Positions 5,294 through 39,632 of a stretch of DNA of 64,000 nt are shown here, piece after piece. Where the stretch lies: NCBI RefSeq assembly GCF_002215035.1, contig NZ_NKFP01000006.1, positions 3,253,080 to 3,317,079 on the forward strand, read 5' to 3'. Position numbers and translations under genes: made by a program. The stretch is from Leptolyngbya ohadii IS1. GTDB taxonomy: Bacteria; Cyanobacteriota; Cyanobacteriia; Elainellales; Elainellaceae. The notes under the pieces are model-generated. The model saw nothing but the letters and a program-made list of their open reading frames with translations. It made no database searches and was not told the DNA's origin. Numbering within the stretch: position 1 is the first letter of the stretch; each line of letters starts with the position of its first letter.

Positions 5294-5369
5294 GACTCAA
5301 TATGACTAGGGATCAAAGACTGATGACGAGAGACTAAAACCAGAAACGAAAACCAGAAACCAAAAGAAG

Positions 5370-5852
5370 TTATTCGTTGCTGACAAATCCAGCGGGTTCC
5401 GCGTTCTGTGCCAGCTCGATCGCTGCCCTTAGCGTATGCCAGGACAGATTAGCGCACTTTATTCGCACGGGAAACTGAGCCACGCCCTGCATCACGTTCA
5501 GCTTGCGTAGCTCCTGGGGAAACTCGGCTTCCCCGCGCATCATGGACTGGAACTTCTGCACCATTTCCAAGGCTTCCGTTGTGGTTTTGCCCCGCAGCGC
5601 ATCTGCCATGAGATCCGCCGAAGCCATCGCGATCGCACAGCCCTCGCCCTCAAATTTCACATCCTCAATCCGATCGCCCGCTCCATTCTCAGAAGCAGTC
5701 AGGTGCAGAGTTATCTCGATCGTGTCCCCGCAGGAGGGATTGTGACCTTTTTGATAGCGATCGATCGGGTCAGTTTTACCGCGATTCCGGGGCTTTTTGT
5801 ACCGCTCCAGAATCACCTGTTGATAAAGATCGCGCAGGTTGTCCAGGGACAT
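5370..5852 (-). CDS. sufU: SufU / NifU-N-type Fe-S cluster assembly scaffold
   Basis: A 160-residue protein starting LDNLRDLYQQVILERYKKP, as in SufU. The three ligand cysteines are in place: NPSCGD (about residue 41), EGEGCAIAMASADLM (about 70) and KCANLSWHTL (about 133). It also has the 18-20 residue insertion between the second and third cysteine regions (MRGEAEFPQELRKLNVMQGVA) that separates SufU from IscU. SufU acts with the SufS cysteine desulfurase in sulfur transfer for Fe-S cluster formation in the cytoplasm. No other suf gene lies nearby. Confidence 0.92.
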   Translation of the reverse strand: MSLDNLRDLYQQVILERYKKPRNRGKTDPIDRYQKGHNPSCGDTIEITLHLTASENGAGDRIEDVKFEGEGCAIAMASADLMADALRGKTTTEALEMVQKFQSMMRGEAEFPQELRKLNVMQGVAQFPVRIKCANLSWHTLRAAIELAQNAEPAGFVSNE

Positions 5853-5914
5853 AAATTCAGTTGGCTGTGATGAGTCTCCTTTCCCATCGTATCAGGGGGA
5901 GGTGTGGATGGGTC

Positions 5915-5975
5915 GATGAGGGGATGGGTGGATGAGGGGGGAGTGGGGAGCGGGGGAGCAGGGAGCAGGGGAGAT
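5915..5975. repeat. G-rich intergenic repeat (GGGGAGCAGGGG family)
   Basis: An almost pure G/A stretch built from units such as GGGGAGTGG, GGGGAGC and GGGAGCAGG. The same vocabulary recurs, on either strand, near 16000-16035, 21183-21290, 36300-36365, 36765-36830, 39628-39672, 42650-42835, 46050-46110, 55140-55215 and inside a gene at 55838-55886. Confidence 0.6.
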
Positions 5976-6077
5976 TTCCAGAGTAAAGTAAGCTAACTTC
6001 CTTGTGGAGTGGGCGTCCTCGCCCGCTAATCCAGATCTGTTCTACTCCTTCAGCCTATTAAATGGACAATCGCTAAA

Positions 6078-6413
6078 TCACGCAGCGGCTTCTTGGGGAT
6101 GGGGGATAAGTTCGTAGCCTGGCTCGTAGATCATTTCCTGGAAGAAATCAGGGGAGTATCCTGCGGCACAGAGAGCAGCCTGAACGATCGCGGCATCGTC
6201 TTCGCAAAAGTAGATTAGGGCAGGGCGATCGTCTTTTTCCGTGGGTTCGGCAGGCAAGAACATAAAGTGGACATCATCCTGCTTCAGCAAAGCCCAGATG
6301 AGCCGTCCCTCAACTTCGCTGCGGTTAATCACTTCAAACTCCAGCACGTCCTGATAAAAGTCAAGCTCACCCAATTGAAGATTAAAGGCAGTATTGCAGC
6401 TCATTTCCGGCAT
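6078..6413 (-). CDS. Small VOC/glyoxalase-like protein, intact copy of an inverted pair
   Basis: A 111-residue protein. The pattern FYQDVLEFEVINR, then WALLKQDDVHFMFLP, ALIYFCEDDAAIVQAALCAAGY and a final MIYEPGYELIPHP resembles one vicinal-oxygen-chelate (glyoxalase/bleomycin-resistance) module. This is a fold-level guess; metal ligands are not obvious. An inner ATG at 6404 (starting MSCNTAF) is an alternative start. Most of the gene (6128-6413) lies in the left arm of a perfect 301-bp inverted repeat, whose other arm carries a second copy. This copy has the natural-looking C-terminus (YEPGYELIPHPQEAAA) outside the repeat and is probably the original. Confidence 0.6.
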   Translation of the reverse strand: MPEMSCNTAFNLQLGELDFYQDVLEFEVINRSEVEGRLIWALLKQDDVHFMFLPAEPTEKDDRPALIYFCEDDAAIVQAALCAAGYSPDFFQEMIYEPGYELIPHPQEAAA

Positions 6414-6428
6414 TCCATGATTACAGCA
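6128..6428. repeat. Left arm of a perfect 301-bp inverted repeat
   Basis: Base-by-base reading shows that the reverse complement of 6128-6428 is identical to 6620-6920 (paired coordinates sum to 13048). The spacer at 6429-6619 is 191 bp and unique. The arm contains the first 95 or so codons of the VOC-like gene and about 15 bp upstream of its start. Confidence 0.9.
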
Positions 6429-6508
6429 TAGCGAGGAGCGAGGGAGGCGGAGTTTTACTTTTATATCAGGCTAGGCAAAGAATAAGCTGGGGCAGTACAA
6501 TTGAACTA

Positions 6509-6533
6509 CAGCACAAGAAAAACTGCTGTGCTG
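6509..6533. other. Hairpin within the spacer of the inverted repeat
   Basis: CAGCACA (6509-6515) pairs with TGTGCTG (6527-6533) across an 11-base A-rich loop. It lies between the divergently transcribed gene copies, upstream of both. There is no T-run for a terminator on the plus strand; the role is unknown. Confidence 0.4.
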
Positions 6534-6619
6534 GTGTATGGGCTGACCTGCTTCTCAGTCCATTAGACAAATCGGGAAAGGATGAGTTGGACGGGTCGGA
6601 TACAAGAAACGCTTTTCAT

Positions 6620-6920
6620 TGCTGTAATCATGGAATGCCGGAAATGAGCTGCAATACTGCCTTTAATCTTCAATTGGGTGAGCTTGACTTTTATCAGGAC
6701 GTGCTGGAGTTTGAAGTGATTAACCGCAGCGAAGTTGAGGGACGGCTCATCTGGGCTTTGCTGAAGCAGGATGATGTCCACTTTATGTTCTTGCCTGCCG
6801 AACCCACGGAAAAAGACGATCGCCCTGCCCTAATCTACTTTTGCGAAGACGATGCCGCGATCGTTCAGGCTGCTCTCTGTGCCGCAGGATACTCCCCTGA
6901 TTTCTTCCAGGAAATGATCT
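6620..6920. repeat. Right arm of a perfect 301-bp inverted repeat
   Basis: Reverse complement of 6128-6428 with no mismatch found by eye. The arm ends exactly where a C tract begins (CCCCCCTCCCCCC from 6921), which suggests that the recombination or copying junction sits at this low-complexity run. Confidence 0.9.
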
Positions 6921-7006
6921 CCCCCCTCCCCCCGATCGCTAAAATAAAAATCCGAAGTATGAGAACCAAAAATGCTGCCACGGGAAGACCTACTAAAAGG
7001 AATTGA
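6635..7006 (+). pseudogene. Truncated inverted copy of the VOC-like gene
   Basis: Residues 1-95 or so are identical to the minus-strand gene at 6078-6413, up to FFQEMI. The natural last 16 residues are then replaced by an unrelated tail beginning SPLPPIAKIKIRS, read through the C tract and the leader of the next gene, so the frame ends 35 bp inside the PSII S4 gene. The open frame extends upstream to 6587, but homology starts with the ATG at 6635. The lost last strand and the foreign tail argue that this is a recent partial duplicate and probably not a functional protein. The perfect identity means it is very young or maintained by gene conversion. Confidence 0.6.
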
Positions 7007-7751
7007 AAATCGAGAAGCTGCTGTTCGTGTGATTGATCAGGCAGATACCGCCATTAAGACCTGGGAAGTGGTCTGCACAGATTTTTTGTCGCCGCCCGAA
7101 CTGGCGGAGGTGCAGCGGATGTTTTCCCGGCTGGTAGACGTGCATTTCCTGACCTGGGGGGGCTACCCGCAGGCAGAAAGACAGCGTGTGGCGATCGCCC
7201 GTGCAGATCTGCCGCTGGATCAGTCGCAAGTAGAGCTTGCTGCCCTGGAAATTGCCGGAAACTTTCTGTTTGACCCTGCCAGCCATCGAGATTTTCTGGG
7301 GGCACTGCTGGGGACGGGCATTGTGCGGGAAAAGGTGGGTGATCTAATTGTGCTGGGCGAGCGGGGGGCACAGGCGATCGTTGTCCCTGATCTGGTGGAC
7401 TTCCTGGAAATGAATTTGACCCAGGTGCGATCGGTTCCAGTGAAAACGCGCCGGATTGACCTGAGCGAACTCAAGATTCAGCCCCCAAAACGGAAGGAAA
7501 TGACGACTGTAGAAGCCTCAATGCGTCTGGATGCGATCGCCTCTGCGGGGTTTGGGATGTCGCGCAGCAAAATGGCGGATTTAATTACGGCAGGTGATGT
7601 GCGGGTGAACTGGAAGGAAACCACCCAGCCCAGCCATATCTTGAAACCGGGGGATCTGGTGGCAATTCGCGGCAAGGGACGCCTGGAGGTGGGGGAAATG
7701 GCAGTTACCAAGAAAGACCGCTATCGGGTGCAGTTGACCCGCCTGGCTTAG
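6972..7751 (+). CDS. Photosystem II S4 domain protein
   Basis: A 259-residue protein of the cyanobacterial/plastid S4-domain family related to YlmH. Its N-terminal half is the family-specific region (LPREDLLKGIENREAAVRVIDQ at the start, FLTWGGYPQAERQR about residue 60). A C-terminal S4 RNA-binding fold (about 180-245) contains LDAIASAGFGMSRSKMADLI and AGDVRVNW. Homologues are annotated as 'photosystem II S4 domain protein'; an RNA-linked role is inferred from the S4 fold. The start is 51 bp after the right arm of the inverted duplication, so its original upstream region may have been replaced by that event. Confidence 0.87.
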   Translation: MLPREDLLKGIENREAAVRVIDQADTAIKTWEVVCTDFLSPPELAEVQRMFSRLVDVHFLTWGGYPQAERQRVAIARADLPLDQSQVELAALEIAGNFLFDPASHRDFLGALLGTGIVREKVGDLIVLGERGAQAIVVPDLVDFLEMNLTQVRSVPVKTRRIDLSELKIQPPKRKEMTTVEASMRLDAIASAGFGMSRSKMADLITAGDVRVNWKETTQPSHILKPGDLVAIRGKGRLEVGEMAVTKKDRYRVQLTRLA

Positions 7752-7896
7752 CCAATAGGAATTAGGATTGAGTCAGCTTTTTGGCTGCTAGCAAGGGGAT
7801 TTTGGCAATCCGATCGATTCGCCAGACAAAAGTGGCACTCTACAGGGCACTCTATAGAGGGCTTATTCGATCGGTGTCAGCATCCTCAGATTTCCT

Positions 7897-10800
7897 ATGC
7901 CAAAGCTGCTTACTCTGCTGCTCGTTCACGATTCCGCTATAGAACGATCGCTTTGTCGTCGCTTACTCTGCAAAAATCCCCTTTTAGCAGATGTTTCGGG
8001 GGAGCAGCATTCCCTAAAAATTACCGAATGCGATGGGGTGGAAGCAGCACTGCGATCGTGCCAGCAGGCGATGCCCGACCTGATCTTGCTGAAGGCTTCT
8101 CTACCCGACAGGGGCAGTCTGGTGTTTCTGGAACGGCTCCGGCAGCAGGGGATAGCTCTGCCCGTTCTTTTATTGATTGCTCCAGGGGAAAACCAGGTGG
8201 CGATCGAGGCGTTGCGGCTAGGTGCCCAGGACTTTGTGATAACCACGCAGATCACGGCTGAGGAGTTAGGCTTGCGAGTGCGGGCAGGACTGGAGCGGCG
8301 GCAGCTTCAATACCATGAGCTTCAATACCATGAGCTTCAATACCATGAGCCTCAATGCCATGAGCTTCAACATTACCAGCTAAGACAACCTCATCGACGC
8401 CTTGAACAGGAACTTACCGATCGCAATCGCATTGAAGAACAGCTTCGAGAACGGGAAGCCCTGTTTCACGCTTTTATGAATCACAGTCCGGCGATCGCCT
8501 TCATGAAAGATGATGCTGGACGTATTGTGTATGCCAACCAGCGGCTTGAACGGCTGTTTCAAATAACGGCTGAGGAACTGATAGGCAAAACCGATTTTGA
8601 CCTTCTCCCTGAACCGATCGCCCAGCAGCTCCGAGCCAATGATTTGCTGATGCTGGAAAGTGGCTCTCCCATCGAATTTATCGAAGTGATTCCCAGTACG
8701 GACGGCTCTATTGCTCATTGGTTAACGCTCAGATTTCCCTTTACTGATAGCCAGGGGAATCGCTTTGTCGGGGGGGTTGCGGTTGACATCACAGCCAGAC
8801 GAGCGGCGGAAGATATTATTCGCAGAAACGAACGGGCAATGCGTGCCTTCGTCCAGATCATGCCGGATATGGTAATTCGGATGGATTCAACGGGATATCA
8901 TCTAGATGCTTCTCCGGGGCAGGTTCTCCTATACAATCCTCAGCAACCTCTGCAAGAGAAATCGGTCTATGATATTTTGCCCTATGAGCTAGCCAAACGA
9001 CGGATGCAGGCTGTTCATGAGGCGATCGCGACTAAAGAAGTTCAGGTCTACGAACAGGAGATTGAAGTAGCGGGGCAGATTCAGTACGAAGAGGTACGAG
9101 TCGTTGCCATTAACAACGCAGAAGTTTATGTAATTGTGCGGGACATTACGGCGCGAAAGCGAGCGGATATTGAGATTCGTCAAACCCGCAATTTTCTCAG
9201 AAGCGTAATCGAGCATTTGCCTGTTGCCCTGTTTGTAAAAGATGCCCGAAAGGAGCATTTTGGCACGTTTAGAGTGTGGAATCGGACGAGCGAGGGGATG
9301 TTTGGCATTCCCTCAGAACAAATCCTGGGGAAAACCAGCGATGAGTTGCTCTCCCTGCAAAAAGCCAACTTTTTCCACCAGACAGACCAGGAGATTTTTG
9401 CCCTTGGTAAGCCCAGCTATACCATCGAAGAAATGGTCGATCCCTACGATCTGGGGCGGCGAACGCTCTACACCATCAAGGTGCCGCTTTACGATGAACA
9501 GAATCAGCCAGAATATCTGATTGGCATCTGCGAAGACATTACCGAACGCAAGCGCCTCGAATCCGAGCTAAAAACTCGCCAGCGGCTTTTAAATGCCTTT
9601 TTTGAAGCTGCCTCCACGGTCGGGGTTGGGTTTGCGATCGCCGATAGTCAACTGCGCTACGTCCAGCTCAACGCCCATTTAGCAGCAATCAACGGCTACC
9701 CGGTCGAAGACCATTTGGGTAAACCGCTCCCGGAACTTCTGCCCGATCTGACCCCCCAAATTGCCCCTATCTTGCAGCAGGTGCTTGCCACCGGAGAGCC
9801 TGTCTTGAATCTGGAAGTTTCTAGCGAGCTGCCCAGCCATCCGGGAGCTGTGCGCCACTGGCTTGTGTCCTACTTTTCGATTCCCCATCCAGACTGCTCA
9901 GAAGCGTCACTGGGAACCATTCTGATTGAAATTAGCGATCGCAAGCAGATTGAACAGGAACTACAGCAGGCAAAGGAAGCGGCGGAAGCGGCGAATCTAG
10001 CCAAAAGCACCTTCCTGGCAAATATGAGCCACGAACTGCGAACTCCTCTCAATGCCGTTCTGGGATTCTCGGAGCTGATGATGCACAACCCTGCCCTGCC
10101 GCCCAACCTGCGAGAGGACATTGGGATAATTCACCAGAGCGGTAATCATCTCCTGGGCTTAATTAACGACATTTTGGACATTGCCAAAATTGAAGCCGGA
10201 CACGCGACGGTCGAGAAAAGCAGCTTTGACCTGTTTGCCCTCCTCTATACCATTCGGAGTTTGCTGCTGGAAGCTGCTACTGCAAAAGGGATTCGGCTGA
10301 ATTTAGAAATTGATTCAGTTGATTCAGAGGTTCCCCAATTCGTGATCGCCGACGCTCAAAAACTGCGTCAGGTGCTGCTGAATCTGCTGGGAAATGCAAT
10401 CAAATTCACTCATCAGGGCAGTGTTACGTTACGGGTCAGCAGCACCCCTCCTGCGCCAGTAGCCCAGCACCTTCAGTTTCAGGTCATAGATACGGGCGTT
10501 GGTATTGCCGCCGCAGAGCTAAACAGCATCTTTGCCCCTTTCTTCCAGGCAAATGCAGGCAAGCTTTCCGGCAAAGGAACTGGCTTAGGACTCACGATTA
10601 GCCGTAAGCTGCTGGAACTCATGGGGGGCAGCATTACCGTCCTCAGTGCCCCCGACCAGGGCAGCACATTCACCGTTACTCTCCCGATCGATCGCTCCAA
10701 GAACAAATCCAGTGAACCAGAACAGCACGATCGCCCTGTGATCGGTTTAGCCCCCGGTCAGCCCAACTACCGCATTCTGGTTGTCGATGATCAGCCCGAA

Positions 10801-39047: not shown

Positions 39048-39632
39048 ATGTCGATCGCAGAAGAATGGTTAGAAATCGGTAAAATCGTCGCTGCTCAGGG
39101 ACTCAAGGGCGAACTGAAGGTCTACCCCAACTCGGACTTTCCCGAACGATTTGAGGAACCGGGAAAACGGTGGCTCCGGCGTCCTGGAAAGACAGAACTG
39201 GAGACGATCGAACTGCTCTCAGGACGGTATCTTGCCGGAAAAGGGCTGTACGTTATTCAAATTAAGGGAATTACCGATCGGGAACAGGCAGAACAGCTCT
39301 GCGACTGTCGGCTGTTAATTCCTAGCAGCGATCGTCCTCACCTGGAGGAAGACGAGTTTCATGTACCGGATTTATTGGGCTTAGAAGTAATCGACCAGAT
39401 CCGTCAGCAGGCGATCGGACGGGTCAAGGACGTGCTGCCCGCAGGAAACGATCTGCTGCAAGTTGAGCTATACGCTGTCGAATCAGATGATTCCAGTTCT
39501 ACCGAATCCACTCAGGATAAAACCCCTCCCAGAACGGTTCTCATTCCCTTTGTGAAGGAGATTGTGCCGATCGTTGATTTGAAGCAGGGGCGGATTGAAG
39601 TTGTGCTGCCTTCGGGGTTGTTGGAGTTGTAG
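39048..39632 (+). CDS. rimM: Ribosome maturation factor RimM
   Basis: A 194-residue 16S rRNA processing factor that binds S19 during 30S assembly. The N-terminal RimM beta-barrel ([27 protein letters not shown]) and the C-terminal PRC barrel (DLLGLEV...[19 protein letters not shown], then [15 protein letters not shown]) are clear. A Ser/Asp/Glu-rich insertion (about residues 145-160) is typical of cyanobacterial forms. A G-rich repeat follows the stop. Confidence 0.95.

What the first reader, a model, noticed from the sequence alone, without database searches (positions are those of the whole stretch)
6128..6920. Perfect 301-bp inverted duplication carrying a small VOC-like gene
Arms 6128-6428 and 6620-6920 are reverse complements without any mismatch I could find, with a 191-bp unique spacer. 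The left gene is complete; the right copy loses its last 16 residues at a C tract and reads into the PSII S4 leader. Perfect identity means either very recent duplication, gene conversion that keeps the arms equal, or an assembly artefact. A spacer flanked by such arms could invert and switch promoters, or the hairpin could affect the S4 gene. The sequence is certain; the function is inference.
Basis: partly seen in the sequence, partly recalled or inferred. Interest (0 to 1): 0.7.

Follow-up and report, generated by a model that had tools for sequence, protein, structure and literature searches.

The report
Inverted gene copy, probably assembly error
The perfect mirror-image copy of a small gene is really in the deposited sequence, but this assembly holds many similar mirror-image patches that its sampled relatives lack, so it is probably a sequencing or assembly error and not a genetic switch.

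Summary

Anatomy. The arms carry the first 95 codons of a small VOC-like gene. Left copy complete (111 aa); right copy lacks the last 16 residues. In single-copy G001 (same genus) the VOC promoter (TAGGCA...TACAAT) matches the window spacer only in the orientation reading into the truncated right copy (score 57 against 19; 0 of 1000 shuffles reach 57). So the spacer is inverted relative to the inferred ancestor, and the complete gene is cut off from its promoter. One template switch, or one segment (6429-6920) placed backwards, explains this.

Context. 12 of 40 sampled 20-kb stretches of this genome hold similar inverted copies, including a perfect 1008-bp palindrome, against 0 of 139 pieces from relatives. 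One patch stands in place of about 100 codons of an otherwise intact gene; another carries 27 substitutions in 89 bp without indels or codon bias. sbcC and sbcD are present.

Verdict: most likely an amplification/assembly artefact (0.68); a real, recent template switch is the main rival (0.25); a maintained promoter switch is unlikely (0.04). No reads were available.

The parts
6128..6428 (-). Left arm of the inverted repeat: first 95 codons of the VOC-like gene plus 15 nt upstream
   Evidence: (100 % complementary to 6620-6920)
6620..6920 (+). Right arm: inverted copy of the same 301 nt
6429..6619 (+). 191-nt spacer; carries the VOC promoter in the orientation that reads into the right, truncated copy, i.e. 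inverted relative to the inferred ancestral order
   Evidence: local alignment to the G001 VOC upstream region, score 57 on + and 19 on -; maximum of 1000 shuffles 27
6472..6501 (+). Promoter-like site TAGGCA-18-TACAAT, both hexamers conserved in G001
   Evidence: consensus scan of 5850-7000: 1 found, shuffles mean 0.8; conservation
6078..6413 (-). Complete VOC-like gene, 111 aa; a single-copy relative in G001 lies next to sufU
6635..7006 (+). Truncated VOC copy (95 codons) with a foreign tail, overlapping the start of the S4 gene
6921..6933 (+). C tract CCCCCCTCCCCCC at the right junction; G001 is also C-rich here, so it may be native S4 leader
6972..7751 (+). S4-domain / YlmH-type RNA-binding protein gene, open frame intact
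5370..5852 (-). NifU N-domain gene (called sufU here; the name is recalled) on the other side, open frame intact

Best explanation
The inverted repeat is most likely an artefact of how this genome was amplified and/or assembled. The real chromosome probably has the ordinary order sufU(-), VOC(-), shared divergent promoter region, S4(+). A 492-bp piece holding the 5' part of VOC and its promoter (6429-6920) was set into the assembly backwards: its VOC part duplicates sequence already present on the left (301-bp arm) and its promoter part appears inverted (spacer). Shown: the repeat, the inverted promoter, the excess of such patches in this assembly. Inferred: that the patches come from inverted chimeric molecules (as in whole-genome amplification) or from faulty gap filling.
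For: 1. The feature is one of many: 14 of 40 sampled 20-kb stretches of this genome hold inverted copies of at least 40 bp within 2 kb (rows), 12 of 40 at the stricter limit of 60 bp and 95 % identity; relatives give 0 of 139 pieces, 1.62 Mb, some overlapping, and 0 of 14 more. 2. They include structures expected (general knowledge) to be very unstable in cells: perfect palindromes of 1008 and 1020 bp without spacer, and a 2.5-kb mosaic of alternating shards, although sbcD and sbcC are present. 3. Amplification chimeras have this anatomy: they left 'numerous inverted duplications' in an assembly that were not detected after read correction (PMC6218980, passages), and amplified DNA gave 'complex multi-inversion structures' (PMC13265396, passages). 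4. At L153 a palindrome stands in place of about 100 codons of a CheA-like gene that is one 1019-aa frame in G001, while the following 825 residues align at 73 % identity: like a filled gap. 5. At L178 the outer end of a palindrome arm has 27 substitutions in 89 nt, no indel, spread 10/8/9 over codon positions, next to 510 nt without any: like bad base calls, not evolution. 6. Turning 6429-6920 round gives a VOC-S4 gap of 257 bp, within the 157-309 bp that I read in the three relatives with the same divergent pair. 7. The assembly looks like a draft: ambiguous bases in what I recognise as a 16S gene, and N runs; some N may be masking by the operators.
Against: The four ends of the window repeat are clean: 21 % and 17 % identity just outside and inside the arms, against a chance mean of 25 %, so this locus itself shows no bad base calls. 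Of 20 ORFs scanned at the edges of 14 patches, 14 have a Pfam match and in most of these the domain at the edge is near full length, which selection would also produce; exceptions are L145 (positions 26-121 of 446) and the broken L153 gene. Two of the 'decaying' arm ends have natural explanations (a Pro-rich linker at L153; low-complexity repeats at L174). Some arms differ by a few mismatches away from their ends (L162, L168, L171), which could also be age. The sequencing method of this genome is not known to me and no reads could be examined. The first 20 kb of six other contigs of the genome showed none (0 of 6). G001 has a rearrangement with its breakpoint in the same VOC-S4 interval, which could mean a truly fragile place.
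Confidence: 0.68

Rival explanations
1. A real, recent mutation in the cell: a replication fork switched template. After copying the gene up to its start (point 1, 6428), the new strand jumped ahead onto the other strand at the far end of the promoter (point 2), copied back through promoter and gene (to point 3, gene position 6128), then returned to the S4 leader (point 4). This single event gives perfect arms and an inverted spacer. The complete gene lost its promoter; the promoter now drives a truncated copy that runs into S4. A simple inverted duplication followed by RecA-dependent flipping of the spacer would give the same sequence.
For: The inverted promoter is what I derive from the four-point model for order 3-1-2-4; the model is described in PMC7954356 (passages; that order itself was not in the passages seen). 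Arms are 301/301 identical while G000 and G001 share only 62/128, 40/69 and 52/92 fourfold sites in three neighbouring genes, so the event would be recent. Junctions are clean. Both flanking genes are open. Two palindrome centres elsewhere sit on natural-looking short palindromes, GCGATCGC at L155 and GTCAATATTGAC at L178; other centres were not examined for this.
Against: It would have to be happening all over one genome and in none of its sampled relatives, with perfect kilobase palindromes in a cell that has sbcC and sbcD. It does not explain the substitution-only patch at L178.
Confidence: 0.25
2. A maintained invertible promoter: the 191-bp spacer flips by recombination between the arms and drives either the complete VOC gene or a truncated copy plus S4; gene conversion keeps the arms equal.
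For: A conserved promoter lies in the spacer, and arms of 301 bp are long enough for homologous recombination (general knowledge).
Against: One of the two outputs is a broken protein. None of the relatives with a VOC match has the arrangement (4 of 59 relatives, one copy each). None of nine neighbouring proteins scanned is a recombinase. Only one orientation is on record.
Confidence: 0.04
3. A mobile element with terminal inverted repeats.
For: Inverted repeat flanking a unique segment.
Against: Each arm is part of a gene that, on the left, continues outside it; only these two full copies exist in the genome; no transposase among the proteins scanned in and around it.
Confidence: 0.01

Closest known systems
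Inverted chimeras (artificial palindromes) of whole-genome amplification carried into assemblies (PMC6218980, PMC13265396; passages seen)
   Same: Inverted copies of nearby sequence; multi-segment mosaics; many per data set
   Different: There they were shown in long reads; here only a finished consensus is available and the library method is unknown
Short-range template switch, four-point model (PMC7954356; passages seen)
   Same: Segment copied in reverse complement between two pairs of switch points, giving a perfect inverted repeat
   Different: 492 nt copied here, while that paper treats short-range events (lengths not seen); order 3-1-2-4, as I derive it, rather than its majority patterns 1-4-3-2 and 3-2-1-4
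Tandem inversion duplications of Salmonella (recalled, not read; the phrase occurs in one paper listed)
   Same: Alternating inverted copies resemble several other patches in this genome
   Different: Those have three copies (recalled); the window locus has two
Invertible promoter fimS of E. coli (start of the abstract of PMC9993118 seen; rest recalled)
   Same: A promoter on an invertible segment, 314 bp there, 191-bp spacer here
   Different: fimS is inverted by a tyrosine integrase; no recombinase was found among the neighbours scanned here

Membership tests
Amplification/assembly artefact (inverted chimera) | Same kind of local inverted copy recurs across this one assembly and not in relatives | tested here: met
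   12 of 40 stretches against 0 of 139 pieces; further 0 of 6 own and 0 of 14 relative stretches
Amplification/assembly artefact (inverted chimera) | True sequence missing where the patch stands | tested here: inconclusive
   About 100 codons missing at L153, the only cluster traced residue by residue; nothing is evidently missing at the window locus
Amplification/assembly artefact (inverted chimera) | Reads contradict the assembled order | not testable with these tools
   No reads available
Four-point template switch | Perfect inverted repeat with spacer reversed relative to the ancestor | tested here: met
   ancestral orientation inferred from one relative (G001)
Four-point template switch | The event exists in the organism's DNA | not testable with these tools
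   Needs PCR or reads
Invertible promoter (fimS-like) | Recombinase gene next to the switch | tested here: not met
   Nine proteins between 72 and 15589 have other Pfam domains, as do the two flanking genes; not every ORF in that stretch was scanned
Invertible promoter (fimS-like) | Both orientations present in a population | not testable with these tools
   One consensus only
Insertion sequence / MITE | Terminal inverted repeats around a mobile unit, several copies | tested here: not met
   Arms are part of a gene that continues outside; two full copies only
VOC (glyoxalase/bleomycin resistance) superfamily | Match to PF00903 over its curated cut-off | tested here: met
   22.5 bits against 20.6, residues 17-87; weak; metal ligands not examined by any search

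The most novel reading that the evidence does not exclude
The patches are real: this cyanobacterium has undergone a recent genome-wide burst of fold-back and template-switch duplications (14 clusters in the 800 kb, about one per 57 kb), tolerates perfect kilobase palindromes despite sbcCD, and at this locus the event moved a promoter from a complete gene to a truncated one, creating by accident a segment that homologous recombination could flip back.
Probability: 0.2. Interest if true: 0.8.

Novelty: not a real feature. Interest (0 to 1): 0.25.

Why it matters
If it is an artefact, a public reference genome probably carries on the order of a hundred false inverted copies, some of them breaking genes (extrapolated from 14 clusters in 800 kb); anyone using it to study repeats, gene loss or gene order should know. 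If it is real, it would be a rare natural record of genome-wide template switching in a bacterium, with perfect long palindromes surviving in the presence of the nuclease thought to remove them. One PCR decides between the two.

Tried and rejected
Mobile element: rejected, arms are part of a host gene. Structured RNA: no Rfam match at gathering score in 5300-8000. Defence gene: no PADLOC match for the two VOC frames. Loss of sbcCD as a reason for tolerated palindromes: rejected, both are present. Polypurine tracts as cause: runs of 20 purines or pyrimidines lie within 200 bp of 0 of 14 patches (random control 1.2 %), so rejected; runs of six or more G or C are commoner in patches (26 in 20,172 bp against 259 in 779,828 bp), which I do not rest on because some look natural. 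Far end of the spacer as a miscalled copy of the S4 leader (shared TAGCGA): compared with G001, the assembled leader fits slightly better (47 against 43), so dropped. Identity of the organism: not established. Literature: searches listed no title or abstract start that reports such patches in this or a related cyanobacterial genome; the lists were cut (15 of 21, 10 of 46), and subscription papers are not held.

Full report
What is there. The window (from a 7.9-Mb genome in 8 contigs, whose nearest named relatives are cyanobacteria) holds a perfect inverted repeat, arms 6128-6428 and 6620-6920, 191 bp apart. Left of it lies a NifU-domain gene (sufU) on the minus strand, right of it an S4-domain gene on the plus strand. 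The arms hold 95 codons and 15 upstream nucleotides of a weakly VOC-like gene (PF00903, 22.5 bits). The left copy is complete; the right copy loses its last 16 residues and reads on through a C tract to 7006, overlapping the start of S4 at 6972.

What the ancestor looked like. Besides this genome, 4 of 59 relatives have a match to the VOC protein, one copy each. The only one of the same genus, G001, has it next to sufU, on sufU's strand, at 49 %. The other three (G014, G030, G033) have theirs divergent from S4, with 309, 157 and 275 bp between the two starts as I read them. Of 17 other relatives' loci looked at around S4, 5 have sufU divergent from S4 with no VOC match between (G002, G004, G006, G009, G020), 3 have the VOC neighbour, and 9 have neither within the stretch taken. 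So sufU-VOC-S4 with a divergent promoter region is the likely ancestral order of this genus, by inference. G001 itself carries a rearrangement: hemE-VOC and epimerase-S4 there, hemE-epimerase here (the names hemE and epimerase are my reading of the sequences).

The spacer is inverted. A 51-nt stretch upstream of VOC in G001 that holds TAGGCA...TACAAT matches the window spacer on the plus strand, reading into the right copy: score 57 against 19 for the other orientation, and at most 27 in 1000 shuffles (alignment also). The promoter scan finds the same site at 6472-6501 (shuffles give 0.8 such sites, so the weight lies on conservation). So the complete left gene has lost its promoter to the truncated right copy. 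Two single-step histories give this: a template switch of order 3-1-2-4 in the four-point scheme (my derivation; scheme in PMC7954356, passages), or a 492-bp piece set into the assembly backwards. The sequence of this locus alone cannot tell them apart. Reversing the piece gives a 257-bp VOC-S4 gap, like the relatives.

It is not alone. As a control I sampled 40 stretches of 20 kb from contigs C6 and C4 of the same genome. 14 of 40 hold inverted copies of at least 40 bp within 2 kb; at 60 bp and 95 % identity it is 12 of 40. The first 20 kb of six other contigs give 0 of 6. Relatives at the stricter limit: G001 0 of 22 pieces, G003 and G008 0 of 20, 17 other family loci 0, 80 named loci around S4 0, together 0 of 139 pieces and 1.62 Mb, some overlapping, and 0 of 14 more stretches. 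At the looser limit G001 has 0 of 20, G003 0 of 10, and G008 4 of 10 with 43-46-nt hairpins only. The search looked only within 2 kb, so that the copies are local is partly by design. The patches range from a clean pair like the one in the window (L172: 359-bp arms, 145-bp spacer, 100 %) to a perfect 1008-bp palindrome (L155) and a 2.5-kb mosaic of direct and inverted shards (L162).

Why I favour an artefact. Perfect kilobase palindromes are hard to keep in bacteria that have SbcCD (general knowledge), and this genome has both genes. At L153 the palindrome stands in place of about 100 codons in a CheA-like gene that is continuous in G001, while the following 825 residues align at 73 %. At L178 one arm end carries 27 substitutions in 89 nt with no indel and no codon-position bias, beside 510 nt that are identical; the other arm is the Pfam-complete PdxJ frame (4-233 of 234). 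L162 involves a gene with a 93 % paralogue elsewhere in the genome, a classic place for assembly trouble. There are ambiguous bases in what looks like a 16S gene, though masking cannot be excluded. Whole-genome amplification is documented to make inverted chimeras and to leave inverted duplications in assemblies (PMC6218980 and PMC13265396, passages). I do not know that this genome was amplified.

What speaks for a real event. The window junctions are clean. Beyond exact arms, 11 of 42 pairs show at least 50 % outer identity against 1 % by chance, but three are single mismatches within longer arms, one is an internal patch, and L153 and L174 have natural explanations on inspection; error-like ends are convincing mainly at L178 and, less so, L166. 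Of 20 ORFs scanned at the edges of 14 patches, 14 have a Pfam match and in most of these the domain at the edge is near full length (exceptions L145 and the broken L153 gene). Arms are not all perfect: a few mismatches lie mid-arm at L162, L168 and L171. Two fold-back centres sit on short palindromes, which fits a polymerase in a cell as well as in a tube. The VOC-S4 interval is also a breakpoint in G001.

Age, if real. Arms are identical over 301 nt, and 36 of 36 fourfold sites agree, while sufU, S4 and the DUF2518 gene agree with G001 at 40/69, 62/128 and 52/92 fourfold sites. The event would be very recent or the arms kept equal by conversion.

Verdict. Observation confirmed; most likely an artefact (0.68), otherwise a recent template switch (0.25). 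A maintained switch is unlikely (0.04). A single PCR on unamplified DNA would decide.

Noticed in passing
L145, L146, L153, L155, L162, L165, L166, L168, L169, L171, L172, L174, L177, L178 (own genome, contigs C4 and C6): Inverted copies, long perfect palindromes and mosaics in 14 of 40 sampled stretches of this assembly; none of comparable size in the relatives sampled.
   Followed up: yes
L153:13641-16489 (G000 C6 about 2,013,641-2,016,489): CheA-like histidine kinase gene interrupted by a 352-bp palindrome; about 100 codons present in G001 are missing.
   Followed up: yes
L178:9582-10793: The start of the PdxJ frame lies at the centre of a palindrome of about 1.2 kb; the other arm ends in a stretch with 27 substitutions in 89 nt and no codon bias.
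   Followed up: partly
L163:560-1730 (G000 C4 start): What I recognise as a 16S rRNA gene holds dozens of ambiguous bases: unresolved consensus, or masking.
   Followed up: no
L042:3335-5620 and L041:4482-6397 against G000 C4:463009-465254 and window 5370-7751: In G001 a hemE-like gene is followed by VOC-sufU and an epimerase-like gene is divergent from S4; in G000 the hemE-like gene is followed by the epimerase-like one. The G001 breakpoint falls in the same VOC-S4 interval as the inverted repeat.
   Followed up: partly
window 8303-8370: 15-bp tandem repeat (AGCTTCAATACCATG, 4.5 copies) inside the N-terminal part of a large hybrid histidine kinase, giving an in-frame LQYHE repeat.
   Followed up: no
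window 5906-5975: Purine-rich intergenic repeat (GGATGGGTCGATGAGG units) between sufU and VOC; similar purine-rich units recur at 39631 and 55161.
   Followed up: no
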